From: Bradyrhizobium barranii subsp. barranii | Lineage (GTDB): Bacteria > Pseudomonadota > Alphaproteobacteria > Rhizobiales > Xanthobacteraceae | Assembly: GCF_017565645.3 (NCBI RefSeq) | Contig: NZ_CP086136.1 | Coordinates: 8,539,501-8,603,500, forward strand | Length of the DNA: 64,000 nucleotides | Direction of reading: 5' to 3' | Shown here: one piece after another, positions 6,905 through 23,827 of the stretch | Layout: each line of letters begins with the position of its first letter | How positions within the stretch are numbered: position 1 is the first letter of the stretch | Translations under genes and position numbers: made by a program | The notes under the pieces: model-generated | Seen by the model: the letters and a program-made list of their open reading frames with translations, nothing else | Database searches by the model: none | Told to the model about the DNA's origin: nothing

Positions 6905-8206
6905 TTACGACTTCAGCGCGTCGCGCGCCGTCTCCGGCGCCATCAGCGTCGCGATGATCGTGATGACCGACAGCGCGATGATGTAGACCGACACCGCCCA
7001 GTACGAGCCGGCCCACGCGAGCAGTGCGGTCGCAATCAGCGGCGAGAAGCCGCCGCTGAGCGCGGCCGCGACGTTGGCGCCGAGCGATGCGCCGCTGTAG
7101 CGGACCTGGGTGCGGAACAGCTCCGGCATGAACGCCGCCTTCGGCCCGAACAGCAGGGCGTGCGTCAGCGTCATCGTGACGACGAGCGCGAACGTGATCA
7201 GCGCCGGCTCCCTGGTGTCGAGGAACCAGAACAGCGGAAACGCCAGCGCCACCGAGAACACCCCGCCGGCGAGATACAGCGCCCTGCGGCCGAAGATATC
7301 GGAGAGCCAGCCGGCGAGCGGCAGCGTCGCGAACTCGACGAGCGCGGCATAGACCACCGCGTTCAGGATCACCTGGCGAGGCAGGCCGAGTTTTGTCGTC
7401 GCATAGACCACGGTGAAGACGGTGAGGAGATAGGCGAGCCCGACCTCCGACACCGTGATGCCGATCGCGAGCAGAAAACTGCGCCAGTCGCGGCGCAGCA
7501 CCTCCAGCACCGGCTGCGCCAGCACTTCCTTGCGCTCGACGACTTCCTTGAAATGCGGCGTTTCCGCGAGCTTGAGCCGCACGATGAAGCCGACGCCGAC
7601 GAGCAGGATGCTGATCAGGAACGGCACGCGCCAGCCCCAACTCAAAAAGTCGGCCTCGGGCAGTTGCGTCATCAGGGCGAAGATACCGGTCGAGGCGGCG
7701 ACGCCGACGGGAAAGCCGATCTGCACCAGGCTGCCGTAGAAGCCGCGGCGATCACCGGCATGCTCGATCACCATCACGACCGCGCCGCTCCATTCGCCCC
7801 CGAGCCCGATGCCCTGGACGAAGCGCAGGATGATGAGCAGGATCGGCGCCCAGACGCCGATCTGGCTGTAAGTCGGCAGGCAGCCGATCAGGAAGGTGCC
7901 GAGCCCCATCGCGATCATGGTCGCGACCAGCATGGTCTTGCGGCCGAGCCGGTCGCCGTAGTGCCCGATGATGGCGCCGCCGATCGGACGCGCCACGAAG
8001 CCGACCGCATAGGTCGAGAACGCCACCAGCGTTCCGACAAAGGGATCGAAGCTCGGAAAGAACAGCTTGTTGAAGACAAGTGCAGCTGCCGTGCCGTAGA
8101 TCAGGAAATCGTACCACTCGATCGCGGTGCCGAGCGCGCTCGCCCACACCACATGCGCCGTCGTCGATCTCTCCGCCGCCGCGGAGACCCCCGTTGCTGC
8201 CGTCAT
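6905..8206 (-). CDS. MHS-family MFS metabolite:proton symporter
   Basis: A 433-residue major facilitator protein of the metabolite:H+ symporter group (KgtP, ShiA, ProP relatives). Signs are ALGTAIEWYDFLIYG at the first helix, RPIGGAIIGHYGDRLGRKT between helices 2 and 3, and GLGGEWSGAVVMVIEHA in helix 5; about 12 membrane helices. I choose ATG 8206; a TTG four codons upstream is also open. It ends 6 bases from the convergent GH79 gene. Substrates of this group are organic acids, osmolytes or aromatic acids; nothing here fixes which. Confidence 0.88.
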   Translation of the reverse strand: MTAATGVSAAAERSTTAHVVWASALGTAIEWYDFLIYGTAAALVFNKLFFPSFDPFVGTLVAFSTYAVGFVARPIGGAIIGHYGDRLGRKTMLVATMIAMGLGTFLIGCLPTYSQIGVWAPILLIILRFVQGIGLGGEWSGAVVMVIEHAGDRRGFYGSLVQIGFPVGVAASTGIFALMTQLPEADFLSWGWRVPFLISILLVGVGFIVRLKLAETPHFKEVVERKEVLAQPVLEVLRRDWRSFLLAIGITVSEVGLAYLLTVFTVVYATTKLGLPRQVILNAVVYAALVEFATLPLAGWLSDIFGRRALYLAGGVFSVALAFPLFWFLDTREPALITFALVVTMTLTHALLFGPKAAFMPELFRTQVRYSGASLGANVAAALSGGFSPLIATALLAWAGSYWAVSVYIIALSVITIIATLMAPETARDALKS

Positions 8207-8330
8207 GCCCTGCCCCAAAAGATTCCTGACGGCATCATGGCCAATCGCGATGGCGGTTGCAACCTGCGGAGGTGTGATCTCTGTGCGAGATTACGATGCG
8301 AGATTTTTGCGCGTCGCTGCTCCCGCACTC

Positions 8331-8417
8331 CGTCATTGCGAGGAGCTCTTGCGACGAAGCAATCCAGGCTGCCTCCGCGGAGAAAGTCTGGATTGCTTCG
8401 CTGCGCTCGCAATGACG
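8331..8417. repeat. Dispersed palindromic repeat (Bradyrhizobium type)
   Basis: An 87-base imperfect palindrome. The left arm, from CGTCATTGCGAGGAGC to GAAGCAATCCAG (8331-8367), pairs with the right arm, from CTGGATTGCTTCG to CGCAATGACG (8388-8417). A smaller dyad CTCCGCGGAG sits in the loop. Repeats starting CGTCATTGCGAGGAG are familiar from rhizobial intergenic regions. It fills much of the 370-base gap between the MHS gene and the LivK-type gene and contains no gene. Confidence 0.75.
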
Positions 8418-8489
8418 GGTGTGGCGGCAGTTGCGCGCACGCCTCCGGCAATGTCTCCCGGGCGACCATGGAACTCATTGACCCCTCTT

Positions 8490-8525
8490 ATTCGCCATTG
8501 ACAAACTCATTCGCCAATATCTAAT
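8490..8525 (+). promoter_or_regulatory. Candidate sigma-70 promoter with a direct repeat
   Basis: TTGACA at 8498-8503 is followed after 16 bases by TCTAAT at 8520-8525, a fair housekeeping promoter ending about 50 bases before the LivK-type gene. ATTCGCCA occurs twice, at 8490-8497 and 8509-8516, flanking the -35 box 19 bases apart (about two helical turns), which could be a regulator site, perhaps for the IclR protein encoded downstream. Confidence 0.4.
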
Positions 8526-8578
8526 TTACCCCCAGAATAACCAGCCGCGCCAAGCGGCCAATAAGAGAGGGATCGACG

Positions 8579-9793
8579 ATGAGAGGGCTTTTGGCCTGCA
8601 CCTTGCTCGCGGCCATGACTTCGGCTGCCATGACCACGGCGGCGCGCGCGCAAGTCTCCGACGACGCGGTGCGGATCGGCGTGCTGACGGATCTGTCGAG
8701 CTGGGGCCGTGACAACAGCGGGCCGGGGTCGGTCGAGGCGGCCAAGATGGCGGTCGAGGAGTTCGGGCCGACCGTGCTCGGCAAGCCGATCGAGATCATC
8801 AGCGCCGACCACCAGATGAAGACCGATGTCGGCGTGCAGATCGTGCGCGGCTGGTTCGACAACGGCAAGGTCGACGCCGTCGTCGACATCCCCAACTCCG
8901 GCATCGCGATCGCCGTGCACAACATGGTGCGCGAACGCAACAAGATCGCGCTGCTCTCCGGCCCCGGCGCGAGCTCGCTCACCGACGAGCTGTGCAGCCC
9001 GAACACCGTGCACTTCACCTACGATACCTACGCGCTGTCCAAGGTGACGGCCTCCGCCGTGATCAAGGAAGGCGGCAAGTCCTGGTACTTCATCACCGCG
9101 GACTACGCTTTCGGCCAGCAGCTCGAGAAGGACGCCACGCGGTTCATCAACGAGATGGGCGGCAAGGTGCTGGGCGGCGTGAAGCATCCGACCAACACAG
9201 CCGACTTCTCCTCCTTTGCGCTCCAGGCGCAGAGTTCGAAGGCCGACGTGGTGGCGTTCGCCAATGCCGGCCAGGACACCGACAACGCCATCAAGCAGTC
9301 CGGCGAGTTCGGCCTGGTGCAGGGCGGCCAGAAGCTGGTCGGTCTCCTGATGTTCGACACCGACGTGCATGCGGTCGGCCTGAAGGCCGCGCAGGGCACC
9401 TACATGACAACGGCGTCCTACTGGAACATGGACGAGGCGACCCGCGCCTGGTCGAAGAAATTCTACGAGCGCACCAAGGTGATGCCGACCATGATCCAGA
9501 CCGGCGTCTACGGTTCGGTGCTGCATTATCTGAAGGGCATCAAGGCCGCCGGCACCGACGATCCCGCCAGGGTCATGGCCAAGATGCGCGAGCTGCCGAT
9601 CGAGGATACCTTCGTGCACGGCGGCAAATTGCGCGAGGACGGCCGCGTCATCCGCGACATGTATCTCGCCAAGGTGAAATCGCCCGAGCAGTCCAAGGAG
9701 CCGTGGGACTATCTGGAGATCGTCAAGACCGTGAAGGGCGAGGACGCCTTCCGCCCGGTCTCCGAATCCAAATGTCCGCTGCTGAAGAAATGA
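8579..9793 (+). CDS. Branched-chain-type (LivK) ABC substrate-binding protein
   Basis: A 404-residue periplasmic protein with a signal peptide (charged start, hydrophobic core, AARAQ cleavage near residue 24) and a Peripla_BP_6 domain (VRIGVLTDLSSWGRDNSGPG, then the two-lobe fold to the C-terminus). Such proteins deliver amino acids, aromatic acids or amides to LivHMGF-type importers. No permease or ATPase follows: the next genes are a flavoprotein 7 bases downstream and an IclR regulator. It either uses a transporter encoded elsewhere or acts as a sensor. SD-like AGAGAGGG precedes ATG 8579. Confidence 0.9.
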   Translation: MRGLLACTLLAAMTSAAMTTAARAQVSDDAVRIGVLTDLSSWGRDNSGPGSVEAAKMAVEEFGPTVLGKPIEIISADHQMKTDVGVQIVRGWFDNGKVDAVVDIPNSGIAIAVHNMVRERNKIALLSGPGASSLTDELCSPNTVHFTYDTYALSKVTASAVIKEGGKSWYFITADYAFGQQLEKDATRFINEMGGKVLGGVKHPTNTADFSSFALQAQSSKADVVAFANAGQDTDNAIKQSGEFGLVQGGQKLVGLLMFDTDVHAVGLKAAQGTYMTTASYWNMDEATRAWSKKFYERTKVMPTMIQTGVYGSVLHYLKGIKAAGTDDPARVMAKMRELPIEDTFVHGGKLREDGRVIRDMYLAKVKSPEQSKEPWDYLEIVKTVKGEDAFRPVSESKCPLLKK

Positions 9794-9800
9794 GGCCCGC

Positions 9801-11534
9801 ATGACCGGCAACGCGCGCAACGCAATTGAGACTTACGAGTGCGATGTGCTCGTGGCCGGATCGGGGGCCTCCGGCATGTCGGCCGCGATCACCGCGGGTC
9901 ATCGCGGCCTCGACGTGCTGATCGTCGAGAAGGAGCCGCGCTTCGGCGGCACCACCGCCCGCTCCGGCGGCTGGCTCTGGATCCCCGGCACCTCGCTGGC
10001 GAAGGCCTACGGAATCGAGGAGGCGCCGGAGCAGGCCCGCACCTACTTGCGGCACGAAGCCGGCAACAACTTCGATGCCGCGCGGGTCGATGCATTCCTG
10101 AGTGCGGGTCCGGAAGCGGTCGATTTCTTCACCACCAGGACCGCGCTGCGCTTCGACATGCCGCTGGTGTTTCCCGACTATCACGCCGAAGCGCCGGGCG
10201 GCGCGCAGGGCGGCCGCTCCATGGTGACGCGCCCGTTCGACGGCCGCGAGCTCGGCGACCAGATCAAGACGCTGGGCATGCCGCTTCCCGAGCTCACCGT
10301 GTTCGGCATGATGCTAGGCTCCGGCAAGGAGATCATCCATTTCATGCGCGTGACGAAGTCGCTGACCTCGGCGGTATACGTCGCCAAGCGCCTGTCACGG
10401 CACCTGATGGACGTGCTGCGGTATGGCCGCGGCATGACCTTGACCAACGGCAACGCGCTCGCCGGGCGCCTCGCGAAATCCGCACAGGACCTGAAGATTC
10501 CGATGTGGCTGTCCTCGCCGGTGCGCGAGCTGACGGTCGAGAACGGCGCGGTCACCGGCGCCATCGTCACCCGCGAAGGACGCGAGGTGCGCGTCCGCGC
10601 GCGGCAGGGCGTCGTGCTCGCCTGCGGCGGCTTCCCGCATGACGTCGAGCGCCGCAAGAAGATGTTTCCACACGCACCGACCGGCCATGAGCATTATTCG
10701 CCGGGACCGACCGGCAACACCGGCGACGGCCTGCGGCTCGCGGAGAGCGCCGGCGGCCACGTCGAGGATCGTCTGCCGAACGCGGCGGCCTGGGTGCCGG
10801 TGTCGGTGACCAAACGCAAGGATGGTTCGAGCGGCGTGATGCCGCATTTCATCGACCGCGCCAAACCCGGCGTGATCGCGGTGATGCGCGACGGCAAGCG
10901 CTTTGCCAATGAGGGCAATTCCTATCACGACTTCGTCCAGGCCATGATCAAGGCCGCAAAGCCCGGCGAGGAGATCGCCGCATATCTCGTCTGCGATCAC
11001 CCGACGCTGCGCAAATACGGCCTCGGCTGCGTGCCGCCGTTCCCGATGCCGCTCGGTCATCACCTCGATACCGGCTATCTCATGCGCGGCGACACGCTGG
11101 AGGCGCTGGCAGCGAAGGCCGGCATCGACGCCAAGGCGTTCACCGAGACCGTCGAGCAGTTCAATGCAACCGCGCCGATGGGGCACGACGCCGCCTTCGG
11201 CAAAGGTTCAAAAGCCTATAACCGCTACCAGGGCGACGCCATGCACGGTCCAAATCCCTGCATCGCGCCGATCGAGAACGGCCCGTTCTACGCCATCAAG
11301 ATGGTGATTGGCGATCTCGGCACCTATGCCGGCATCGTCACCGACGAGAACGCGCGGGCGCTGGACGCCGAAGGCCGGGTGATTCCCGGGCTCTATGCCG
11401 CCGGCAACGACATGGCGAGCATCATGGGCGGCAATTATCCCGGCGCCGGCATCACGCTTGGGCCGGCGCTGACCTTCGGCTACATTGCCGGCCGTCATCT
11501 CGCCGACAGCGCCGCCAAGCGCAACGCGGCGTAA
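9801..11534 (+). CDS. FAD-binding oxidoreductase (fumarate reductase/ketosteroid dehydrogenase-like)
   Basis: A 577-residue FAD_binding_2 flavoprotein. The ADP-binding motif is VLVAGSGASGMSAA near residues 13-26, followed by GGTTARSGGWLWIPG; the C-terminal FAD contact reads GGNYPGAGITLGPALTFG. This arrangement fits the 3-oxosteroid 1-dehydrogenase and soluble fumarate-reductase branch, which moves hydrogen into or out of a C=C bond next to a carbonyl. It follows the LivK-type gene by 7 bases and precedes the IclR gene by 19, forming a three-gene operon for an unidentified, perhaps cyclic or unsaturated, acid. Confidence 0.85.
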   Translation: MTGNARNAIETYECDVLVAGSGASGMSAAITAGHRGLDVLIVEKEPRFGGTTARSGGWLWIPGTSLAKAYGIEEAPEQARTYLRHEAGNNFDAARVDAFLSAGPEAVDFFTTRTALRFDMPLVFPDYHAEAPGGAQGGRSMVTRPFDGRELGDQIKTLGMPLPELTVFGMMLGSGKEIIHFMRVTKSLTSAVYVAKRLSRHLMDVLRYGRGMTLTNGNALAGRLAKSAQDLKIPMWLSSPVRELTVENGAVTGAIVTREGREVRVRARQGVVLACGGFPHDVERRKKMFPHAPTGHEHYSPGPTGNTGDGLRLAESAGGHVEDRLPNAAAWVPVSVTKRKDGSSGVMPHFIDRAKPGVIAVMRDGKRFANEGNSYHDFVQAMIKAAKPGEEIAAYLVCDHPTLRKYGLGCVPPFPMPLGHHLDTGYLMRGDTLEALAAKAGIDAKAFTETVEQFNATAPMGHDAAFGKGSKAYNRYQGDAMHGPNPCIAPIENGPFYAIKMVIGDLGTYAGIVTDENARALDAEGRVIPGLYAAGNDMASIMGGNYPGAGITLGPALTFGYIAGRHLADSAAKRNAA

Positions 11535-11553
11535 GCCACGCGCAAGGAGACGC

Positions 11554-12348
11554 ATGAAGAGAGAAAGCCGCGGCATCCAGTCGATCGAGGTCGGCGGAGA
11601 ATTGCTTCGCGCGCTCGCGAGATGCGGCGAGCCGATGATGCTGCGCGATCTCGCCCGCGAGGCCGGCATGACGCCGGCCAAGGCGCATCCCTATCTCGCC
11701 AGCTTCTCCCGCATCGGGCTGATCGAGCAGGACGAGACGACCGGCCACTACGAGATCGGCGCGCTGGCGCTAGAGCTCGGCCTGATCAGCCTGCGCCGGC
11801 TCTCCGGCGTGCGGATCGCGCGTCCGAAGATCGCAGGCCTCGCGAGCCAAATCGGCCATGCCGTCTCGCTCGCGGTCTGGGGCACGCACGGCCCGACCGT
11901 GGTGCAGCTCGAAGAGCCGGGCCAGCCCGTGCACATCGTGATGCGCGCCGGTTCGGTCATGGCGCTGCTCGAAACCGCGACCGGCCGCGCCTTTGCGGCG
12001 TTCCTGCCGGAGAAGACGATCAACGCCGCGCTCGAGAGTGGCCTCGACCGTCATGGCGTCGGCTACAACCCGAAGCGCGCGGTGAAGGGCGCGAAGGTCG
12101 CCGAGATGCTCACGGAGGTCCGCAAGCACGGCCTCGCCCGCGCGCTCGGCGATCCCCTGCCCGGCGTCAATGCGTTCTCGGCGCCGGTGTTCGATCATTC
12201 CGGCCATGTCGCGCTGGTGATCACCGCGATGGGGCCGGAAGGCACTTTTGATGCACGATGGGACAGCCCCATCGCCCATGCCCTGCGCGACTGCGCCGGC
12301 GGCATCTCGAAGCGGCTCGGCTACGGGATGACGATCGCGGCGGAGTGA
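11554..12348 (+). CDS. IclR-family transcriptional regulator
   Basis: A 264-residue IclR protein. The N-terminal winged helix (LRDLAREAGMTPAKAHPYLA, residues about 28-47) is followed by the GAF-like effector domain with GRAFAAFLPE and the C-terminal GVNAFSAPVFDHSGHVALV. ATG 11554 has AAGGAG 5 bases upstream, which rules out earlier in-frame starts inside the flavoprotein gene. Last gene of the LivK-flavoprotein-IclR operon, so probably a local substrate-responsive regulator. Confidence 0.92.
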   Translation: MKRESRGIQSIEVGGELLRALARCGEPMMLRDLAREAGMTPAKAHPYLASFSRIGLIEQDETTGHYEIGALALELGLISLRRLSGVRIARPKIAGLASQIGHAVSLAVWGTHGPTVVQLEEPGQPVHIVMRAGSVMALLETATGRAFAAFLPEKTINAALESGLDRHGVGYNPKRAVKGAKVAEMLTEVRKHGLARALGDPLPGVNAFSAPVFDHSGHVALVITAMGPEGTFDARWDSPIAHALRDCAGGISKRLGYGMTIAAE

Positions 12349-12354
12349 GGCCTG

Positions 12355-14505
12355 TTAGGCCGGCGAAACGCGCACCTCCTCCGCGGAGATCGATCCGCTG
12401 TCGACGACGAGCGCGACGGCGCCGCTGGTCAATGGGAGATCGCCCGTGTCCTGAACGCTGAAGAGTTTTTTACCATCGACATGGGCTTCGATGTCGGTTC
12501 CGGCCACGCGCAGCTCAATCCGATATCTCCGGTCGAGCTGCCAGTCGAAGCGTTCGCTGGCGAGCACGAGTTCGTCATGCACGCGCTTGACCAAACGGAC
12601 GCGGCCGCCCTCGGCACGGTCGAACATCAGCGCGTAATAGCGCTCGCGTCCCTGCACCCGCGCCGCGAGGCCCCAGGCGTTCGCCAGCAGCGGCATGATC
12701 TCGGACGTTACGCGATAATCCTTCCAGTCGCGCGTACCCTGCGCGATGAAGCCGAGCCCGTCGCCATTGGTAACGCGCAGGCCCTCCCAGCGGGTCTGGA
12801 ACTGGCTGACATTGTTGACCCAGGCGTGCTTCCACATCGTGCTCAGATTGTTGTCCGGCCGCTTCAGCACGGTGTCAGGCGCGCCACCCCAGGTCAGATA
12901 GTCGAGATAGAGCGTGCCATCGACGCCGAGCGGATCGCGCGTTTCGATCTCCACCCCGATCTCGAAGATCGGATAGGCATGGGTCTCCGGCACCTCCCAG
13001 CTCAGCACGGCGTGACAGCCGCCGGTCAGTTCCTGCGCATCGCCGTAGATCTGGATCAGCTCGTCGTGCTCGTCATAGACGCTGGAAAACAGTCGCACCG
13101 CCACGGTGCCGCTATCCGCTTCCGATTCAATCCGGCACTCCACCTGTTGCCCCGAATACAGCGTCGGACAGGCCACAAGCTGGTAGGTCGGCATCGTAAA
13201 CACCTCCTTGTCGAAGAAGGTGGGGCTCGCAACGCGTGCCACGCGTCCGGGCGCCAGACGGCGGAAGTCGATCGCCAGACTCCGCTCCCCAGTGCGGCTG
13301 TGGCCGGCGACATTGCTGAGCTCGACCTCGTGGAGCCGTGCGGGCGAGCCGCCCTTCACGTGGAAGCCCTGCAGGCTGCCCGGAAAGTTGAAGTTGAAGC
13401 GCGCGCCGTCCTTGGCGACCGCCAGCGCCGGCGCACCGGCGAGCGCAAGCCCGGCCGCGACCAGCGACTGCGTCTCGATCACGGCGTCGGAGATCGCAGC
13501 GCCACCTTCGGCCGTCGAGATGTACATGCGGTCGGCGATGGGGGTGCGGAAGTCCGGCCCGGCGTCGAGGCCGGCAAGTCCGGTGCGGATGCCGAACAGG
13601 CAGCCGACATTGCCGGCATTGCAGTCGGTATCCCAGCCGGCCGTGTTGGCGATGCGCATCGCCTCCTGAAAGCTGTTCCCGCCGTAGAGCGTCGCCAGAA
13701 TGATCAGCGCGTGGTTGGGCACGACATGGCAATTGCCGAGGAATTTGTCGTAGCCGTAACGTTCGGCGATCAGCGCACGGGTCCGTTCCCAGTCGTTGCC
13801 GTTGTCGCCGGCGTGCCATTCCCGGACGTCGTTGACGACGCGCCGGATCAGCGCGTCCTTCGGCACGAAGCCGAGCCCGACATCGATCAGCTTCTGCACG
13901 TCGTGCTCGACGAAGGCCAGCGCCTCCATCGCCGCGAGCAGTTTTGCGGCATGCACGGATTCACCATCATGGCTCACGCGCCCGGCCTGCTCGGCCAGAT
14001 AAGCGGCCTGCTCCGGATTACCCGGGCTCACCATCGCCCAGCCGTCGATGAAGATTTGCGCACCGATCTGCTCGGCTACGGTCGTGCCGTTCAGCGCGAT
14101 CGAGCCGCTCTGCGGCGCCGGGATACCGGACTTCAGCCGCAGATAGGCGGTGTGCTCGGTGGAATTGCCGATGCCACCCCACCACAGGATGGCGCGCTCC
14201 TCGACGATGTAGTTCAGCCAGGCTTGCCCGATCTGCTTCGAGGTGAGACGCTTCGGATAGCCATTGTCGGCAAGCGCGCGGGGAAACGCAAAAGTGCCAG
14301 AGACGTCGTCGTCGGTAACGACGAGATGATGGGATCGCAACGCGACGTCACGACGCTCGTTGACATAGTAGTTGATCGGCCCGAGCTCCTTCATGATGCG
14401 CTCATAGGTCCAGCCCTCGAAGGGCCGGCCGAGGTAGACACCGATGAGCTTGCCAAGCACGCCGGCATAGACCCGCTCCGCGTAGTCATGAGGAATAGCT
14501 GTCAC
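12355..14505 (-). CDS. ADP-ribosylglycohydrolase-fold protein with beta-rich C-terminal region
   Basis: A 716-residue protein, twice the size of a simple DraG enzyme. Residues about 10-340 carry the ADP-ribosylglycohydrolase fold: GVLGKLIGVYLGRPFEG, the metal-binding run VTDDDVSGTF (Asp65-67), and GWDTDCNAGNVG late in the domain, giving the second Mg-binding acidic pair. Residues 370-716 are beta-rich and look like a carbohydrate-binding or concanavalin-like module, especially the last 150. The GTG start at 14505 follows GGGAGTG. It lies 36 bases downstream of a LacI gene and across from a sugar ABC importer, so an N-glycoside or ribosyl sugar substrate is more likely than a protein-linked ADP-ribose. 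That is inference. Confidence 0.8.
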   Translation of the reverse strand: MTAIPHDYAERVYAGVLGKLIGVYLGRPFEGWTYERIMKELGPINYYVNERRDVALRSHHLVVTDDDVSGTFAFPRALADNGYPKRLTSKQIGQAWLNYIVEERAILWWGGIGNSTEHTAYLRLKSGIPAPQSGSIALNGTTVAEQIGAQIFIDGWAMVSPGNPEQAAYLAEQAGRVSHDGESVHAAKLLAAMEALAFVEHDVQKLIDVGLGFVPKDALIRRVVNDVREWHAGDNGNDWERTRALIAERYGYDKFLGNCHVVPNHALIILATLYGGNSFQEAMRIANTAGWDTDCNAGNVGCLFGIRTGLAGLDAGPDFRTPIADRMYISTAEGGAAISDAVIETQSLVAAGLALAGAPALAVAKDGARFNFNFPGSLQGFHVKGGSPARLHEVELSNVAGHSRTGERSLAIDFRRLAPGRVARVASPTFFDKEVFTMPTYQLVACPTLYSGQQVECRIESEADSGTVAVRLFSSVYDEHDELIQIYGDAQELTGGCHAVLSWEVPETHAYPIFEIGVEIETRDPLGVDGTLYLDYLTWGGAPDTVLKRPDNNLSTMWKHAWVNNVSQFQTRWEGLRVTNGDGLGFIAQGTRDWKDYRVTSEIMPLLANAWGLAARVQGRERYYALMFDRAEGGRVRLVKRVHDELVLASERFDWQLDRRYRIELRVAGTDIEAHVDGKKLFSVQDTGDLPLTSGAVALVVDSGSISAEEVRVSPA

Positions 14506-14541
14506 GAGTTCACTCCCATATCCAATTACTTGGCTCGCGGG

Positions 14542-15597
14542 TCAGACCGACGAGCGCTTCATGATCTCGAATTTCAATTCATGGCTCCGGCCCGGCGCCG
14601 CGAGCCCGCCCGGTTGCAACCGCTTGACCAGCGTCTCCGCCGCAAGCGCGCCGAGATCGAACTCCGGTTGCCGCACCGTGGTGAGCCCGAGCAGCTTTGC
14701 GACCGGGATATCGTCGAAGCCAGCGATTGCAATGTCGCTGGGGATCGAGAGCCCGGCTGCACGCGCCGCCTCCATCGCACCGAGCGCCAGCACGTCGCTC
14801 GCGCCGAACACGGCGGTCGGGCGATCGCCGTTTCTTTCGAGCAGCCGCTTCATCGCACGCGCGCCGGATTCCTCGGAATAGGCGCTGTCGGTAATGAAAT
14901 CAGGCGCAAGTCCCGCTTCCCGCATCACCGCGCCGTAACCCTGCGCGCGCCGCTGGCTCGGGCCGAACTCGGCCTGGATCATGGCGATGCGCCGGTGCCC
15001 GCGCGCAATCAGAAGCCGCGTCATTTCCGCGGCCGCTTCGGCATTGTCGATATAGACGCTGTCGATCGCGAGCGGTCCGTCCGGCTTGTGCTGGCTCTCC
15101 AGCCGCACCAGCGGGATGCCCTTACGCGCGAGCACGGCGAGCTGGGGCGCCCGCAGATGAAAGAACGTTGCGACGACGCCATCGGCCCGTCCCTGGAGCA
15201 GCCAGTCGATGGCGCGGGCCTCGCCTTCCGGCCGCCCGTCGGTGTCGAAGATCAGGACGTCATAGCCAGCCGGCGCCGCGACCGTCTGCAATCCCCGGAC
15301 GAGGCCTGGATAGAACGGATTGGTGATATCTGGAATGACACAGGCAAATGTCATGGTCCGCGCGCTGCGCAGCATCCGCGCCGGATGGTTCGGCTGGTAA
15401 CCCAGCTCCTGTGCGACCTGAAGAATGCGCGTGCGCGTCGCAGGCGGAACGGACGGCGTCTCCGTCTTGTTCAGGACAAGCGACACCGCGGCCTGCGAAA
15501 CACCGGCCGCGAGCGCGATATCCTTCTGCGTGGGGCGGGCTGGCGCCTGCTTGTCGCGCCCCTTCCCCCGCTTCGTCCTCGTTGTTGACGTCGCCAT
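14542..15597 (-). CDS. LacI-family transcriptional regulator
   Basis: A 351-residue LacI/GalR protein. After a basic N-terminal tail the helix-turn-helix and hinge are textbook: TQKDIALAAGVSQAAVSLVL (residues about 23-42), then YQPNHPARMLRS; the sugar-binding domain follows (DITNPFYPGLVRGLQ). It is divergent from the sugar ABC operon and co-directional with the glycohydrolase gene, and a strong palindrome lies 5 bases from its start. It probably represses both sides and itself until the sugar binds. Confidence 0.93.
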   Translation of the reverse strand: MATSTTRTKRGKGRDKQAPARPTQKDIALAAGVSQAAVSLVLNKTETPSVPPATRTRILQVAQELGYQPNHPARMLRSARTMTFACVIPDITNPFYPGLVRGLQTVAAPAGYDVLIFDTDGRPEGEARAIDWLLQGRADGVVATFFHLRAPQLAVLARKGIPLVRLESQHKPDGPLAIDSVYIDNAEAAAEMTRLLIARGHRRIAMIQAEFGPSQRRAQGYGAVMREAGLAPDFITDSAYSEESGARAMKRLLERNGDRPTAVFGASDVLALGAMEAARAAGLSIPSDIAIAGFDDIPVAKLLGLTTVRQPEFDLGALAAETLVKRLQPGGLAAPGRSHELKFEIMKRSSV

Positions 15598-15601
15598 TTG
15601 G

Positions 15602-15623
15602 CTTAGTTATACGTATTACTAAG
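15602..15623. promoter_or_regulatory. LacI-type operator
   Basis: CTTAGTTATACGTATTACTAAG is a 22-base palindrome broken only by one T:T pair on each side of the central ATACGTAT. The CG centre is typical of LacI-family operators. It lies between the divergent LacI and substrate-binding-protein genes, 5 bases from the first and 52 from the second. Confidence 0.75.
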
Positions 15624-15674
15624 GGAAAATCAACAATCACCGCCAATGACCTGAGGAAACCGAGGTTCATCGCC

Positions 15675-17015
15675 ATGACCATGACCCGACGCCAGCTTGT
15701 TGCCGCCATCCCCGCTGCCGCACTTGCCGCGAGCTTGCCACGCGACGTTCGCGCCGAGGACGGGCGCAAGGTCGTGACGTTCTGGTTCGGCCAGGCGAAT
15801 TCGGACGGCCAGGCCGCGCTGCGCAACGATCTGGTCGAGGCGTTCAACGCCTCGCAGGACAAATATCTGCTCCAGCTCGAGGTGAAGGGCGCCGCCGTCA
15901 ACAACCTCCTGAAGGTCGCACTCGTTGCCGGCAACGGCCCGGACATCGTGCAGACCGCAGGCCCCGCCTATCTCACCGCGATCGCGAATGCCGGCCAGGT
16001 GCTGCCGCTCGACGATTTCGCCGAGAAGTACAAGTGGAAGGATCGCTTCCTGGCGCCGCTGCTCAACACCAGCGTCTACGGCGGCAAGCTCTACGCGCTG
16101 CCGCGCGACTACGAGTCGATGCACCTGTTCTATAACAAGGAGCTGTTCAAGCAGAACGGCTGGAAGCAGCCGACCAACCGGCAGGAGATGGAGGCGATCG
16201 CAGACGCAGCGCTCGCCAAAGGCGTCATCCCCTTCGGCGCCGGCAATGCCGACTGGAAGGGCGTGAACGAGTGGCTGATGACGGTGTTCTTCAACAACGT
16301 CGCTGGCCCCGACAACGTGCGCAAGGCACTTGCCGGCGAACTGCCCTGGACCGCGCCGCCGTTCGTCGAGGCGGTCGAACTGTCAAAGGCGTGGTACAAC
16401 AAGGGCTATTTCGGCAAGAACTATTTCTCGCTGACCATCGAGCAGAGCTTCCTCCAGGTCGTCAACGCCAAGGCGGCGATGGCGTTCAGCGGCACCTGGT
16501 CGTTCGGCACCAAATCCTACGGCATGTCGAAGCCCGATACCGTGATCGACGTCATGCCGACGCCGACCCTCGGCTCGGCCTTCACGGGATCACTGGTCCA
16601 TCTCGCCTGCGGCGCGACGCTGTCGATCGCCAAGAACTCGCAGAATGCGGAAGGCGCAGCCGCCGTGTTCGAGTTCATGCTGACGCGCAAGTTCTACGAG
16701 ACCATGAACCGCGACTGGCCCGGCAAATGGGCACTCCCGGTCAAGGACCTGCCGCCGGACATGCTCCAGGGCATCGGCTATCCCCTATTCGAGAAGACGA
16801 TCGCGAATCTGCACGAAGCGTTCAGCAAGGGGCAGTACGGCTTCACCACCTGGACGTTCTGGCCCGGCGCCACCAACTCCTATCTGATCGAAGGCATCGA
16901 GCAGGTCTGGCTCAACAAGATCACGCCGGACGCTTACCTCACGCGGATGCAGACGCTCTTCAGCCAGGAAGCAAAAGAAGGCAAGGTGCCGCCGCTGCCG
17001 CCGCGGACGGCCTGA
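15675..17015 (+). CDS. Sugar ABC transporter substrate-binding protein
   Basis: A 446-residue extracellular solute-binding protein family 1 member (MalE/UgpB type). It starts MTMTRRQLVAAIPAAA with a Tat-like leader cut near residue 28. The body has GNGPDIVQTAGPAYLTAI and LPRDYESMHLFYNKELFKQN, both characteristic of this family. ATG 15675 (or 15681) is preferred over much earlier in-frame codons that cross the LacI operator. First gene of an operon with two permeases, regulated by the divergent LacI gene. It probably binds an oligosaccharide or glycoside. Confidence 0.92.
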   Translation: MTMTRRQLVAAIPAAALAASLPRDVRAEDGRKVVTFWFGQANSDGQAALRNDLVEAFNASQDKYLLQLEVKGAAVNNLLKVALVAGNGPDIVQTAGPAYLTAIANAGQVLPLDDFAEKYKWKDRFLAPLLNTSVYGGKLYALPRDYESMHLFYNKELFKQNGWKQPTNRQEMEAIADAALAKGVIPFGAGNADWKGVNEWLMTVFFNNVAGPDNVRKALAGELPWTAPPFVEAVELSKAWYNKGYFGKNYFSLTIEQSFLQVVNAKAAMAFSGTWSFGTKSYGMSKPDTVIDVMPTPTLGSAFTGSLVHLACGATLSIAKNSQNAEGAAAVFEFMLTRKFYETMNRDWPGKWALPVKDLPPDMLQGIGYPLFEKTIANLHEAFSKGQYGFTTWTFWPGATNSYLIEGIEQVWLNKITPDAYLTRMQTLFSQEAKEGKVPPLPPRTA

Positions 17016-17021
17016 CGCACG

Positions 17022-17870
17022 ATGTGGCTCTTCGCGCTTCCAGCGCTCCTGATTAACGTCTGCATCATCCTGGTTCCCGCCGTGCTAACATTCACGGCGG
17101 CATTCTTCATGTGGGACGGTGTCGGAAAGCCGGCGTGGGCGGGACTGGCCAACTTTCAGAACATGTTCGCCGATCCCGTGTTCTGGTCGGCGCTGACAAA
17201 TAACTTCATCTGGACGGCGATCTTCCTCATCGTGCCGGTCTGCCTCGCGCTCGTGATGGCAGCGGCGCTGCTGATGGCGCCGAAGGCGCGCATCGTGGTC
17301 CAGTCCATCATCTTCCTGCCGCGTATCATCGCTGTCGCAGTCACAGGCCGCATCTTTCAGGGCATGATCTTCAGCCCCGCGACCGGCGTCGTCGCCTGGT
17401 TGAACGAGCACGGCTTTTCGATCTCCGATCCCCTCGCCGACCCCGACCGCTCGCTCTATGCTGTCGCCGCGGTCGACATCTGGCACTGGTGGGGCTTTCT
17501 CGCGGTCGTGTTCCTGTCGGCGATGCGGCAGATCAGCATCGACCAGATCGAAGCCGCGCGGCTCGACGGAGCCGGCTTCTTTGCTTTGTTCCGCTACGTT
17601 CTGATCCCGGGCATCCGCCCGACCCTGACCTTGATGCTGATTCTGACCGTGATCTGGTCGTTCCAGGTCTTCGAATTCATCTTCATTGTCACCCGCGGCG
17701 GCCCCGCCTATGGCAGCGAGGTGCTGGCGACATTTGCCTACCGCCACGCCTTCTTCGAAGGCGACGTCGGCCAGGCTGCAGCCGCCGCCTGCGTCATGAG
17801 CCTGTTCGGCCTGTGTGCCACCGCCGTCTATCTCTGGCTCCAGATCACCGACGACGCGCAATCGACATGA
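17022..17870 (+). CDS. Sugar ABC transporter permease (MalF type)
   Basis: A 282-residue inner-membrane protein with six predicted helices and the binding-protein-dependent EAA loop (IDQIEAARLDGAGFFALFRY, residues about 169-188) that contacts the ATPase. It starts 6 bases after the binding-protein gene, beginning directly with the first helix (MWLFALPALL), slightly short at the N-terminus compared with MalF/UgpA-type relatives. Its end overlaps the next permease gene by ATGA. No ATPase gene follows, so the pair must borrow an MsmK/UgpC-type ATPase. Confidence 0.92.
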   Translation: MWLFALPALLINVCIILVPAVLTFTAAFFMWDGVGKPAWAGLANFQNMFADPVFWSALTNNFIWTAIFLIVPVCLALVMAAALLMAPKARIVVQSIIFLPRIIAVAVTGRIFQGMIFSPATGVVAWLNEHGFSISDPLADPDRSLYAVAAVDIWHWWGFLAVVFLSAMRQISIDQIEAARLDGAGFFALFRYVLIPGIRPTLTLMLILTVIWSFQVFEFIFIVTRGGPAYGSEVLATFAYRHAFFEGDVGQAAAAACVMSLFGLCATAVYLWLQITDDAQST

Positions 17871-18694
17871 TCGGGGATCGCTGGAGCAGGACATTCAGCC
17901 TCGGGCTGATCGGTATCGCATCGTTCAGCTCGCTGCTGCCGATCGTGCTCGCCGTGATGAACGCACTGAAGACGACGGTCGAGATCGGCAGCAATCCGCT
18001 CGCGCTGCCGACCCAGTTGCACTGGGAGAATTTTTCCTCCGCCTGGCGCAACGCCCAACTCGGCCCGAGCCTGCTGCACAGTGCCGAAGTCGCGATCCTG
18101 ACCATTCTGATGGTGTGCGTCACCGCGACGCCCTGCGCCTATGTGCTGGCGCGGCAGAAGGGAAAATTCTGGCGCTTCATCACCTTCTACTTCATGGCCA
18201 CGATCACCGTGCCCGTGCAGCTCTATCTCTACCCGCTCTACTTCATCTTCGCGAAGCTCGGGCTGGTCAATTCGATCCCCGCGGTGGCTCTGATCTACAC
18301 GGCGATGTTCTCGCCGTTTGCGATTTTCCTCTTGCGCACCTACGCGCTCGCGATTCCCGTCGCGCTCGAGGAAGCAGCCCAAGTTGACGGCGCAAAGCCG
18401 TGGCAGACCTTCTGGTACGTGATCCTGCCGATGATGCGGCCCGGGCTGCTCACGGTCGCCATCATCGTCGGGCTGAACGCCTGGAACGAGTTCGTCATCG
18501 CCGTGACGTTCCTGCAGAACGACAGCAACGTTACCGCGATCGTGCGCTTCTACAATCTGACCGGCCAGTATTCGACCGACTGGGGCGAGATGCTGGCCGC
18601 AGCCGTCACCATCGTGCTGCCGATCGTTGCGATCTTCGTGCTGCTGCAGCGTCAGTTCATCGACGGCATGACGTCGGGCGCGGTGAAGTCTTGA
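17867..18694 (+). CDS. Sugar ABC transporter permease (MalG type)
   Basis: A 275-residue partner permease with about six helices. The EAA loop VALEEAAQVDGAKPWQTFWY near residues 165-184 and the family C-terminus identify MalG/UgpE-type proteins. ATG 17867 overlaps the stop of the MalF-type gene by four bases, so translation is coupled; long upstream in-frame sequence belongs to the other gene. It is the last gene of the operon, ending 4 bases from a convergent SDR gene. Confidence 0.92.
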   Translation: MIGDRWSRTFSLGLIGIASFSSLLPIVLAVMNALKTTVEIGSNPLALPTQLHWENFSSAWRNAQLGPSLLHSAEVAILTILMVCVTATPCAYVLARQKGKFWRFITFYFMATITVPVQLYLYPLYFIFAKLGLVNSIPAVALIYTAMFSPFAIFLLRTYALAIPVALEEAAQVDGAKPWQTFWYVILPMMRPGLLTVAIIVGLNAWNEFVIAVTFLQNDSNVTAIVRFYNLTGQYSTDWGEMLAAAVTIVLPIVAIFVLLQRQFIDGMTSGAVKS

Positions 18695-19535: not shown

Positions 19536-20126
19536 TCAAGCCGCCGCAAAGCCGAGATGAGCACGGAACCGGTTCTTGATAAAGACGGCATCGCGCGAGG
19601 GCAGCGAGCGCGGCGGATTTTCCGCCAGAACCTTGATGACAAAAAGCCGCGGGCCGTCGGCCGGTCCGGCGATCTGCGCGGCGAGGCGCTGCACCTCCTC
19701 GAGCGTCCGCACGCTTCCGGTCGCGGCGAAGCCGCAGGCGGCGGCAATTGCCGTGAGATCGACGCCGCGGCCGGTGTGGCTCGCCTGCATGCCGGTCTCG
19801 CCAAAATGCTGATTGTCGATCACGACGATGTCGAGATTGCGCGGACGCGCGACGCCGATGGTGGCGATGCCGCCGAGACCCATCAACTGCTCGCCATCGC
19901 CCGTCAAAGCCAGGACGCGCTTGCCCGGCTGCGCTTGCGCGAGCCCAAGCGCGATCAACGCGGCGCCACCCATCGCGCCCCAGAGATAAAAATTGCCGTC
20001 GTGATCCCCCACGGAATGCAGGTCGTAGGTGGGCGAGCCGAGACCGGAGACGACCAGCGTGTCCTTGCGGTCCTTCAGGAGCGCGGCGACGGCGGCGCGA
20101 CGATCGAGTTGAGCTTGCATCGGCAT
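19536..20126 (-). CDS. TPP-binding subunit of a split 2-oxoacid decarboxylase (ComE-like)
   Basis: A 196-residue protein matching the C-terminal pyrophosphate-binding half of TPP enzymes. It has LTGDGEQLMGLGGIATIG, the GDG-N motif form used by sulfopyruvate and phosphonopyruvate decarboxylase beta subunits, then NLDIVVIDNQHFGETG. Its ATG at 20126 overlaps the stop of the alpha-subunit gene by one base (TGATG), so the two are made in step. Together they should form one decarboxylase acting on a 2-oxoacid. No sulfonate or phosphonate genes are near, so the substrate is open. Confidence 0.8.
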   Translation of the reverse strand: MPMQAQLDRRAAVAALLKDRKDTLVVSGLGSPTYDLHSVGDHDGNFYLWGAMGGAALIALGLAQAQPGKRVLALTGDGEQLMGLGGIATIGVARPRNLDIVVIDNQHFGETGMQASHTGRGVDLTAIAAACGFAATGSVRTLEEVQRLAAQIAGPADGPRLFVIKVLAENPPRSLPSRDAVFIKNRFRAHLGFAAA

Positions 20127-20668
20127 CACCACTTCTTCTTGCCGATCAGGCGTTGCCCGATCAGAACCGCGATCTGCTGGTCGGACTCGTAGGCAAGCGA
20201 TGCCGCCGATTCCACGGTCTCGACCAGATCCTCCGCCGTCTCCGCGCGCATCACCTTCAGGCCGATCGCTTCCAGCGACGGCTGCGTCGCCCGGCTCATC
20301 GGCACCTGCCAGGGATTGAACTCGGCCCATTCACCGCGCATCGTCACCAGCATCAGCAGCGGAAAGCGCCCGATCGCCGACAGCGACAGCATGTTGATGC
20401 AATTGCCGACGCCGCTCGACTGCATCAGCAGCACGCTGCGCTGATCGCCGAGCCAGGCGCCGGCGGCGATGGCGATGCCCTCCTCTTCCGTGGTCAGTAC
20501 GTTGGTGGTGACGTCGCGGTCGGCCGAGAACATGCGGATGAGCTGGCTGTGGCCGGCATCCGGCACGTAGGACATCTGCCTGACGTCGGCGGCTTTGAGG
20601 ATACGATAGAGCTCGGACGGCCAGTCGTCGCTGCTGCGCGTTTCAGGATTCGGTTGAGGGCTGTGCAC
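20126..20668 (-). CDS. Pyrimidine-binding subunit of a split TPP decarboxylase (ComD-like)
   Basis: A 180-residue protein equal to the N-terminal half of TPP enzymes. It has YVPDAGHSQLIRMF and TNVLTTEEEGIAIAAGAWLG; the Glu in TTEEEG is placed to activate the cofactor. This is the size and motif pattern of ComD, the sulfopyruvate decarboxylase alpha subunit, and of the phosphonopyruvate decarboxylase N-half. It is followed at once by the beta subunit and then by an SDR. Start at ATG 20668. Confidence 0.8.
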   Translation of the reverse strand: MHSPQPNPETRSSDDWPSELYRILKAADVRQMSYVPDAGHSQLIRMFSADRDVTTNVLTTEEEGIAIAAGAWLGDQRSVLLMQSSGVGNCINMLSLSAIGRFPLLMLVTMRGEWAEFNPWQVPMSRATQPSLEAIGLKVMRAETAEDLVETVESAASLAYESDQQIAVLIGQRLIGKKKW

Positions 20669-21808: not shown

Positions 21809-22552
21809 TCAGGCAAATGCGCGCGGACGCAGTCCAGCATGAAACCAGGTGATCATGGAATAGATGTCGTAGACCGGCAGTCCAACTTCGGCCTGCAAAG
21901 CTGCCGCATAAGGCGGCATGTTGGTGCATTCGAGCACGATGGCGCCAACATCCGGATTCTTCGCGACCAGCTCCTTGCCCGCCTCGACCACGTCACGCTC
22001 GGCCTGGGCCACATCCATGTCGTCCTTCTCGGCCTTGATCAGGACGCGAAAAAATTCCTTGCCGTGCTCGGTGCCGACCAGTGGCGTATCGAGCGGCACG
22101 CCGGCGCCTTCGAGATGGGCCGGCGTCAAGGTCGAACCTGATACCGTGACGAGGCCGACGCGCTTGCCCGGCGGCAAGGTCGCCTGCACCCACGGCACCT
22201 GCATCAGCGACGAGGTCGCTACGGGAACGCCGACGGCGGCCGCGATCTCCTTCTGAAACAGCGAGAGGAAGCCGCAATTGGTGGTGATGGCTTCCGCGCC
22301 CAACCGGACCAGGTCCTTGGCCGCATCGATGAAGTCAGGCAGCAGGCCGGCGGCGCCCTTTAGCACCACCTTCTCCGGCGACGCGCCGCTCACCACGCGA
22401 TAGAGCACGGGGAACGGCCAGGTCGTGCCGTTGCCCATGTCGCCGGGAATGCGGGGAAAGCGCGCTTCCAGCATCAAAATGCCGAGCGGCGCGCCATAGA
22501 TGGCCTTGCCGCCGCGGGCGATGCGAGAGGACGAGTTGGCTGGATAGGTCAT
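21809..22552 (-). CDS. Aspartate/glutamate racemase family protein
   Basis: A 247-residue protein of the Asp/Glu/hydantoin racemase superfamily, which inverts or isomerises small acids using two cysteines. Both are present: AITTNCGFLS near residue 93 and VLECTNMPPYA near residue 210. It begins with a run before GAPLGILMLEARFPRIPGD that matches the start of the paralogue at 30.55 kb. It is the last gene of a minus-strand operon after a DadA-like oxidase. Maleate isomerases and arylmalonate decarboxylases share the fold, so racemisation is not certain. Confidence 0.85.
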   Translation of the reverse strand: MTYPANSSSRIARGGKAIYGAPLGILMLEARFPRIPGDMGNGTTWPFPVLYRVVSGASPEKVVLKGAAGLLPDFIDAAKDLVRLGAEAITTNCGFLSLFQKEIAAAVGVPVATSSLMQVPWVQATLPPGKRVGLVTVSGSTLTPAHLEGAGVPLDTPLVGTEHGKEFFRVLIKAEKDDMDVAQAERDVVEAGKELVAKNPDVGAIVLECTNMPPYAAALQAEVGLPVYDIYSMITWFHAGLRPRAFA

Positions 22553-22561
22553 GTTGCGTTC

Positions 22562-23827
22562 TCAGAGGAAGCGAGTGGGCGCGAACGGCGCGAGCGGAAT
22601 CTCCGGCTGCTTGCCGCTCAGGAGCTGCGCGACCAGACGGCCGGTGCGGGCCGATCCGACCAGGCCGACATGGCCATGGCCGAAGGCGTAGACGATATCG
22701 CGCGAGGCACGCGCATGGCCGATGCAGGGCAGCCCATCGGGCATGCTCGGCCGATGGCCGAACCAGGTCTTGATGCGCGAGGGCGGAATGTCCTTCGGCA
22801 GTTTCGGGAACATGCTGAAGAGGTTGTTGCGCAAGATCTCGGCGCGCTTCCAGTTCGGCGCGGCGTCGAGGCCGGCGATCTCGACAGTGCCGGCGGCGCG
22901 CAGGCCCTTGTCGGTCCAGTTCACCACCATGCTGACGTCGGACGCCATCATCGAGCTGCGCGGACCCGATTCCGGGTTCTCGATCATGACGTGATAGCCG
23001 CGCTCGGTTTCGAGCGGCAAGGGATCGCCGACGGATGCGGTGAGCTGTTTTGACCGCGCGCCGGCGGCAACCACCGCGGCATCGCAAGCAATCTCACCGG
23101 TCTCGGTGAGAACGGCAACGAGCTTGTTGCCTGAAAGCTTCAGACCGGTCGCCCTGGCATGAACGAGCTTGGCACCGCTCGCGAGCGCATGCTGGGCCAG
23201 CGCCGCAACGTAAGCGCCGGGATCGCGGCAGCGGCCGGCTTCCTCCACCACCACGCCAAACGTGTAGCGCGGATGCAGATCCGGCTCGCGCTGACGCATC
23301 TCGTCGACGTTCAGCTCCAGCCATTCGACGCCGACCTTCTTGCGCAGGCGCCAGCCGAGATTGCTGTCGAAATTGCCGCGCGACGGGAATACGTGCATCA
23401 CGCCGTTGCGCTCGACCAACTCGGGCACGCCCGCTTCTTCCGCGAGCTTCTTGTGCAGCAGCGGCGCGTCCTTCAGCAGATCGCGCAGCGCAAACGCCGT
23501 CTTCTCGACCCGTGCCTCGGTCCAGCCCGAGAGCAAATACTTGATCAGCCAGGGCAGCGCCTTCGGCAAGTAAGACCAGCGGATCGCGAGCGGGCCGAGC
23601 GGGTCCATCAGATAACCCGGCACCTTCTTCCAGAGGCCCGGTTCGGCCGGCGGAATCACCGAATGGGAGGAGAGCCAGCCGCCATTGCCGTAGCTCGCCG
23701 CCTGTTCGCCACCGGGCTCGCCTGCGTCGATCAGCGTGACGCGATGCCCCTCGCGCAGCGCCTCGATGGCGCTGATCACGCCGACCGCGCCGGCTCCGAT
23801 GATAGCGACGTGGCGGCCTTCCGACAT
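22562..23827 (-). CDS. DadA-like FAD-dependent D-amino-acid dehydrogenase
   Basis: A 421-residue DAO-superfamily flavoprotein. The dinucleotide motif HVAIIGAGAVGVISAIEALR is at residues 7-26, followed by ASYGNGGWLSSHSVIPP, which is characteristic of DadA. The enzyme would oxidise a D-amino acid (or another secondary amine) to an imine, passing electrons to quinones. Gene order fits: RidA, an imine deaminase, and an aminotransferase are in the same operon, 3 bases after the TPP enzyme gene. The oxidised substrate may be produced by the racemase encoded next. Confidence 0.87.
   Translation of the reverse strand: MSEGRHVAIIGAGAVGVISAIEALREGHRVTLIDAGEPGGEQAASYGNGGWLSSHSVIPPAEPGLWKKVPGYLMDPLGPLAIRWSYLPKALPWLIKYLLSGWTEARVEKTAFALRDLLKDAPLLHKKLAEEAGVPELVERNGVMHVFPSRGNFDSNLGWRLRKKVGVEWLELNVDEMRQREPDLHPRYTFGVVVEEAGRCRDPGAYVAALAQHALASGAKLVHARATGLKLSGNKLVAVLTETGEIACDAAVVAAGARSKQLTASVGDPLPLETERGYHVMIENPESGPRSSMMASDVSMVVNWTDKGLRAAGTVEIAGLDAAPNWKRAEILRNNLFSMFPKLPKDIPPSRIKTWFGHRPSMPDGLPCIGHARASRDIVYAFGHGHVGLVGSARTGRLVAQLLSGKQPEIPLAPFAPTRFL

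What the first reader, a model, noticed from the sequence alone, without database searches (positions are those of the whole stretch)
12355..18694. ADP-ribosylglycohydrolase-fold enzyme built into a LacI-controlled, ATPase-less sugar ABC locus
Seen: a 716-residue protein with the DraG metal motifs (VTDDDVSGTF, GWDTDCNAG) and a 350-residue beta-rich C-terminal half, next to a LacI gene with a strong palindrome and a sugar-type ABC binding protein with two permeases. Known: DraG-fold enzymes cut N-glycosidic ADP-ribose bonds. Inference: this one may cleave an imported N-glycoside or ribosyl conjugate, with uptake and cleavage controlled together. No kinase or isomerase is nearby, so the products must be handled elsewhere. 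I know of no described system with this set.
Basis: partly seen in the sequence, partly recalled or inferred. Interest (0 to 1): 0.72.

Follow-up and report, generated by a model that had tools for sequence, protein, structure and literature searches.

The report
ADP-ribosylglycohydrolase-fold enzyme in sugar-uptake locus
A soil bacterium carries a repressor-controlled sugar-uptake locus with an unusual three-part enzyme that may split imported ribose-bearing compounds inside the cell; the arrangement recurs in distant bacteria, but its chemistry is untested.

Summary
In detail: a 716-aa PF03747 protein (ARHL), a LacI repressor, a palindromic operator, a sugar-type binding protein and two permeases, with no ATPase or kinase beside them. 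The set is not unique. In an evenly drawn sample of the order, 16 of 297 genomes hold ARHL (own included). Of 16 regions fetched from the other 15 genomes, 16 hold LacI, binding protein and permeases, 11 an adjacent UgpC-type ATPase, 6 a kinase whose best NCBIfam model is ribokinase, 4 a second short ARH gene. In five other loci the adjacent kinase passes the ribokinase cut-off. The operator occurs once in the 11.4-Mb genome and recurs before lacI in other orders and Chloroflexi. A confident model shows an ARH domain plus two carbohydrate-binding-module-like sandwiches.

Best reading: a ribose-bearing glycoside is imported, ARHL cuts it in the cytoplasm, and a ribokinase (in the locus in some relatives, elsewhere here) takes the ribose. 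The substrate is inferred. 'No kinase' and 'ATPase-less' describe this branch, not the system. Ten full-text searches found no description of it.

The parts
12355..14505 (-). ARHL, 716-aa ADP-ribosylglycohydrolase-fold enzyme with two C-terminal beta-sandwich domains
   Evidence: PF03747 180.5 bits; AlphaFold2 model pLDDT 90.6, pTM 0.93; no signal peptide visible by eye, no predictor run
13438..14493 (-). ARHL domain 1 (residues 5-356): ARH fold
14305..14313 (-). first metal-site motif, D65-D66-D67
   Evidence: invariant in 50 rows; D66 and D67 also shared with YegU and the short ARHs; metal role recalled from the family
13609..13638 (-). second metal-site motif, GWDTDCNAGN (residues 290-299)
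   Evidence: D292 and D294 invariant in 50 rows and in 10 divergent ARH sequences; metal role recalled
12883..13416 (-). ARHL domain 2 (residues 364-541): CBM-like beta-sandwich
12358..12873 (-). ARHL domain 3 (residues 545-716): CBM66/galectin-like beta-sandwich
14542..15597 (-). LacI-family repressor, 36 bp upstream of ARHL on the same strand
   Evidence: PF00356 and PF13377 over cut-off; adjacent to ARHL in 15 of 15 loci of the genus
15603..15622 (.). operator TTAGTTATACGTATTACTAA between the divergent lacI-ARHL and SBP-permease units
   Evidence: single place in the genome at up to 3 mismatches; recurs in related loci
15675..17015 (+). extracellular sugar-binding protein, SBP_bac_1
   Evidence: PF01547 E 3.6e-21; solved relatives include chitin-oligosaccharide and other sugar binders
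17022..17870 (+). ABC permease 1 (MalF type)
   Evidence: PF00528; GlcT and UgpA models below cut-off
17867..18694 (+). ABC permease 2 (MalG type), overlapping permease 1 by 4 bp
   Evidence: PF00528; GlcU and MalG models below cut-off

Best explanation
A LacI-controlled salvage locus for a ribose-bearing glycoside. The binding protein and two permeases (CUT1 type, a label recalled) import it, probably energised by a UgpC/MsmK-type ATPase borrowed from another system. In the cytoplasm ARHL, a metal-dependent ARH-fold glycohydrolase carrying two lectin-like sandwiches that help hold the glycan part, cuts the ribosyl bond. The released ribose is phosphorylated by a ribokinase encoded elsewhere in this genome but inside the locus in some relatives. 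LacI represses both divergent units from one operator and lets go when the conjugate or ribose accumulates. Shown here: gene content, predicted domain folds, metal residues, operator, conservation. Inferred: catalysis, ribose as product, cytoplasmic site, ATPase sharing, inducer.
For: Neighbourhood: 16 of 16 regions from the order sample, covering all 17 ARHL matches outside the window's genome, hold LacI, SBP and permeases; 11 of 16 an adjacent UgpC-type ATPase; 6 of 16 a PfkB kinase. For those six kinases ribokinase TIGR02152 is the best NCBIfam family in 6 of 6, at 204-249 bits, below its cut-off of 299.65. In L013, L020, L028, L038 and L061 the adjacent kinase exceeds that cut-off (333-373 bits). 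In L140, L141 and L144 the kinase gene starts at or within about 15 bp of the operator before lacI. Operator: at up to 3 mismatches in 13 of 75 loci outside the Bradyrhizobium type, against 0 or 1 for each of 20 shuffled palindromes. Fold and metal residues intact. The own genome has three ribokinase-like genes at 299.5, 296.6 and 276.2 bits and at least nine UgpC-type ATPases.
Against: No assay and no ligand. Kinases are absent from most loci: found near ARHL in 10 of 80 genome-contig loci by seed score, plus L052, L057, L059, L062 and L064 by clustering. Of these 15, eight form a divergent group whose best NCBIfam scores are only 62-78 bits and pass no cut-off; L062 was not scanned. CUT1 importers usually carry oligosaccharides, not nucleosides or free ribose (recalled). 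The CBM66 relative comes from a levanase, a fructan enzyme. Ten of 45 well-flanked loci had no LacI, permease, binding-protein or PfkB gene nearby. Ten of the 13 operator-bearing loci are Rhizobiales relatives, so they are not independent, and 5 of 16 order regions lack the operator at 4 mismatches. All nine own-genome UgpC-type ATPases found have other permeases nearby, so no free partner is visible.
Confidence: 0.5

Rival explanations
1. The substrate is a glycoside of another sugar, for example a fructofuranoside, an arabinofuranoside or a hexoside; the ARH fold has been recruited as a general glycoside hydrolase and the kinases phosphorylate that sugar.
For: Importer with sugar- and oligosaccharide-binding relatives; two CBM-like domains, one closest to CBM66 of a levanase; the kinases of one Chloroflexi clade are not close to ribokinase; the loop reading GNGGAMR in ARH3 is replaced by IGAQIFIDGWAMV in ARHL.
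Against: Kinases passing the ribokinase cut-off beside ARHL in five loci, and ribokinase as best family for all six kinases of the order sample.
Confidence: 0.25
2. ARHL is a nucleosidase- or ADP-ribose-type enzyme: the locus imports nucleosides, ADP-ribose or another nucleotide-sugar piece and splits off the sugar, in the manner guessed for E. coli yegTUV.
For: E. coli yegTUV joins a transporter, an ARH and a sugar kinase; the transporter is predicted to be a nucleoside symporter and the regulator GgaR responds to ADP-glucose in vitro (passages of PMC10819704). LacI here scores best with CytR and RbsR models, well below cut-off.
Against: The binding protein and permeases are of the SBP_bac_1/MalFG sort, with sugar and oligosaccharide binders among solved relatives; no nucleobase-handling family appears among the 25 of 90 families shown for 76 operon neighbours.
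Confidence: 0.13
3. ARHL is a regulatory protein de-ADP-ribosylase, DraG-like, that switches the transporter or another protein on.
For: Same fold as DraG and ARH3.
Against: No NCBIfam match, DraG model included; no ADP-ribosyltransferase among the neighbours scanned; the tie to LacI, sugar uptake and kinases fits catabolism better.
Confidence: 0.05

Closest known systems
E. coli yegTUV with yegW/ggaR
   Same: An ARH-fold gene in one operon with a transporter and a sugar kinase, under a local repressor (passages of PMC10819704).
   Different: A predicted nucleoside symporter instead of an ABC importer, GntR instead of LacI, a 334-aa ARH without the two sandwiches; functions of yegTUV were unknown to those authors.
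ADP-ribosyl-acceptor hydrolases (DraG, ARH1, ARH3)
   Different: Gene setting, extra domains, and the loop that reads GNGGAMR in ARH3.
CUT1-type sugar ABC import loci with LacI regulators
   Same: LacI, SBP_bac_1 and two BPD_transp_1 permeases with an operator next to lacI.
   Different: The enzyme is an ARH-fold protein, not a classical glycosidase; the ATPase is missing here.
CBM66 of the Bacillus levanase
   Same: Same beta-sandwich over 154 residues at 1.9 A.
   Different: Here part of an enzyme with no export signal visible by eye; 18% identity; binding residues not compared.
Ribose catabolism with RbsR (LacI family) and ribokinase
   Same: LacI-type regulator and ribokinase-like gene in several related loci. 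Nine groups of RbsR regulators for ribose are listed in passages of PMC4052901.
   Different: An SBP_bac_1-type importer and a glycohydrolase before the kinase.

Membership tests
PF03747 ADP_ribosyl_GH superfamily | Profile score over the curated cut-off | tested here: met
   180.5 bits against 26.2
PF03747 ADP_ribosyl_GH superfamily | Two aspartate metal motifs | tested here: met
   D65-D67, D292 and D294 invariant in 50 rows; metal binding itself not tested
PF03747 ADP_ribosyl_GH superfamily | All-helical ARH fold | tested here: met
DraG (TIGR02662) | Match to the NCBIfam equivalog model | tested here: not met
   0 NCBIfam families at E 0.01
ARH3-type ADP-ribosyl-acceptor hydrolases | Substrate loop seen as GNGGAMR in ARH3 | tested here: not met
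   ARHL has IGAQIFIDGWAMV there, by chaining the ARH3 alignment of a short ARH with the alignment of that ARH to ARHL; that the loop is defining is recalled, and DraG's and ARH1's letters were not seen
ADP-ribosyl-acceptor hydrolases ARH1/ARH3/DraG | Hydrolysis of ADP-ribosyl bonds | not testable with these tools
   Needs an enzyme assay
CUT1-type ABC importer | SBP_bac_1 binding protein and two BPD_transp_1 permeases | tested here: met
CUT1-type ABC importer | ATPase encoded in the locus | tested here: not met
   None among the window genes scanned; adjacent in 11 of 16 order relatives; nine UgpC-type ATPases elsewhere in the genome at E <= 1e-80, 150 of 275 candidates scored
LacI-family local repressor | HTH plus effector domain, and a palindromic operator at its own gene | tested here: met
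   binding itself not tested
yegTUV-type ARH-kinase system | PfkB kinase in the locus | tested here: not met
   None among the window genes scanned; present in 6 of 16 order relatives
CBM66 | Fold | tested here: met
CBM66 | Ligand-binding residues | not tested
   Binding-site residues were not compared

The most novel reading that the evidence does not exclude
ARHL founds a class of cytoplasmic ribofuranosidases: an ADP-ribosylglycohydrolase-fold glycoside hydrolase with two built-in carbohydrate-binding-like modules, in some lineages paired with a second short ARH enzyme. It would serve a ribose-glycoside uptake pathway whose LacI regulator and operator are recognisable from Alphaproteobacteria to Chloroflexi.
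Probability: 0.3. Interest if true: 0.65.

Novelty: new variant of a known kind. Interest (0 to 1): 0.47.

Why it matters
The ARH fold is known mainly for removing ADP-ribose from proteins (recalled). Relatives of this protein are very many (7855 of 7999 scored candidates match at E <= 1e-3; where a source gives a name it is usually ADP-ribosylglycohydrolase), and most of the ARHL genes whose surroundings I examined sit in sugar-uptake loci (35 of 45 well-flanked loci with permeases; 16 of 16 in the order sample). If the reading is right, that annotation misnames a widespread family of sugar-releasing enzymes and points to an unrecognised ribose-containing nutrient. The conserved operator and linked ribokinase make this directly testable in ordinary laboratory strains.

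Tried and rejected
A system unique to this genome: rejected. Extra regulon members elsewhere in the genome under the same operator: none at up to 3 mismatches. An orphan ATPase partner: the nine UgpC-type ATPases found at E <= 1e-80 all have permease genes within a few kb; 150 of 275 first-look candidates were scored, so weaker ones may have been missed. A second PF03747 gene in the own genome: none. A recurrent further enzyme in related operons: 76 neighbours scanned (25 of 90 families shown) gave binding proteins (4 members) and PfkB (4 members) at the top and the rest in one or two members, so no further pathway step was found. Those 76 are 75 of the 116 unlabelled operon ORFs plus one cluster member (L019:13829); the other 41 were left out by eye without a fixed rule (plasmid loci, short or cut ORFs, Rhizobium neighbours, and some others).

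Plasmid tblastn served as a source of named examples only; five of its 35 records were opened. Literature: ten searches listed no description of an ARH-LacI-ABC locus. They leaned on the word ADP-ribosylglycohydrolase and the yeg gene names; other names for the enzyme were not tried. I saw only listings, apart from found passages of PMC10819704 and PMC4052901.

The tree is midpoint-rooted and shown without support values. Neighbour labels come from phmmer scores against seeds with bit thresholds of my own. The sets overlap: contig lengths and positions show that L137 and L066, and L142 and L047, are the same regions. The genus loci hold only about 1.5 kb on each side of ARHL, so permeases and ATPases cannot be seen there. 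Of the middle domain only a few rows speak.
Full report
Observation. ARHL (12355-14505, minus) passes the PF03747 cut-off with 180.5 bits; LacI, the SBP_bac_1 protein and two BPD_transp_1 permeases also pass their Pfam cut-offs. LacI lies 36 bp upstream of ARHL on the same strand, and the binding-protein gene starts 77 bp away in the opposite direction. Between them is TTAGTTATACGTATTACTAA, 15603-15622. At up to 3 mismatches the pattern occurs once in the window, in none of 100 shuffles, and at one place in the whole 11.4-Mb genome. By this test the regulator is local.

Distribution. The family is large: 7855 of 7999 scored candidates match at E <= 1e-3. In the genus, 15 of 195 genomes, own included, hold ARHL at E <= 1e-100; all 15 loci hold LacI and the start of the binding-protein gene, the flanks being too short to show more. 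In an evenly drawn sample of the order 16 of 297 genomes, own included, hold it. I fetched 16 regions from the other 15 genomes, covering all 17 matches outside the own genome. All 16 hold LacI, binding-protein and permease genes (in L148 the binding-protein gene is about 4 kb from the nearer of two ARHL genes). Eleven have a UgpC-type ATPase next to ARHL, six a PfkB kinase, four a short ARH, and eleven the operator at up to 4 mismatches. Four of these regions (L149-L152) carry a more distant ARHL subfamily without that operator.

A wider, score-selected set of 80 genome-contig loci, the best of 545 relatives, includes Rhizobiales, Superficieibacter, Paraburkholderia, Chloroflexi and others. 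Of the 45 with at least 5 kb on both sides, 35 have permeases, 33 the binding protein, 26 LacI, 14 a UgpC-type ATPase, 5 PfkB and 6 the short ARH; 10 have no LacI, permease, binding-protein or PfkB gene by my thresholds. The sets overlap in part.

Kinase. In L013, L020, L028, L038 and L061 the kinase next to ARHL passes the TIGR02152 ribokinase cut-off (373, 340, 347, 333 and 335 bits against 299.65). The Deinococcus (L004), Shinella (L056) and Agrobacterium (L005) kinases fall just short at 291, 285 and 279. The six from the order sample score 204-249, with ribokinase as best family each time. Against this, eight kinases of one Chloroflexi clade reach only 62-78 bits with their best models, so the sugar may differ between clades, and most loci have no kinase at all. 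In L140, L141 and L144 the kinase is divergent from lacI, with the operator at or within about 15 bp of its start.

Operator. Outside the five Bradyrhizobium-type loci, the window's operator is found at up to 3 mismatches in 13 of 75 loci and at up to 4 in 19 of 75. Twenty shuffled palindromes gave 0 or 1, and 0 to 5, loci respectively. Ten of the 13 are Rhizobiales relatives; the others are one Enterobacterales locus (L063) and two Chloroflexi loci (L028, L061), so the count is not one of independent events. Of 24 loci inspected, the site lies between -16 and 79 bp from the lacI start in 22.

The window's branch. No other PF03747 gene is in this genome. A short ARH follows ARHL in L009 and L097-L100 and heads the divergent transporter unit in L010 and L011, but is absent from the window's own subclade and from L096. 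The tree puts L010 and L011 outside the Bradyrhizobium loci and the window's subclade beside the one that keeps it; loss is the simplest account, though its changed position leaves other histories open. The ATPase is absent here and also next to ARHL in 5 of the 16 order regions (L140, L141, L142, L144, L150). The nine UgpC-type ATPases found in the genome have other permeases nearby. ATPase sharing, known from MsmK/MsmX (recalled), is the natural explanation but is not shown. Three ribokinase-like genes exist elsewhere at 299.5, 296.6 and 276.2 bits, just under the cut-off.

Mechanism. Import through an SBP_bac_1/MalFG-type system, cytoplasmic hydrolysis by ARHL, a ribokinase on the product and LacI derepression is the reading that joins these facts. 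The chemical identity of the substrate is not determined. The importer class and the lectin-like domains favour a glycan-like ribose conjugate over a nucleoside; this step is inference. The nearest described system is E. coli yegTUV, whose repressor responds to ADP-glucose in vitro and whose enzymes had no known function (passages of PMC10819704).

Novelty. Ten full-text searches listed no description of an ARH-LacI-ABC locus; the library lacks most subscription papers, and only a few names for the enzyme were tried. I rate it a new variant of a known kind.

Noticed in passing
window 19536-20668 (-): Two adjacent ORFs resemble sulfopyruvate decarboxylase beta and alpha subunits (134.7 and 113.1 bits, both below cut-off), not far from an ORF that looks like a GntR-type regulator by eye and an SDR dehydrogenase.
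   Followed up: partly
window 21809-23827 (-): A PRK07475-family protein (331.1 bits, over its cut-off of 231) beside a FAD protein resembling D-amino acid dehydrogenase (below cut-off).
   Followed up: partly
window 6905-12348: An ORF that looks like an MFS transporter by eye, a Peripla_BP_6 binding protein, a FAD oxidoreductase (PRK06134, over cut-off) and an IclR regulator; the last three also flank ARHL in L007 and L008.
   Followed up: partly
L009, L097-L100; L010, L011: A second, short ARH gene (333-338 aa): downstream of ARHL in L009 and L097-L100, and at the head of the divergent transporter unit in L010 and L011, with the operator 28 bp before it. Pfam checked for L009 and L010.
   Followed up: partly
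L049, L050, L054, L055, L063: Two overlapping operator-like copies 13 bp apart before lacI, the second weaker (3-4 mismatches); perhaps cooperative repressor binding.
   Followed up: no
L148: Two ARHL genes in convergent orientation within one 19-kb region, without the operator at 4 mismatches.
   Followed up: no
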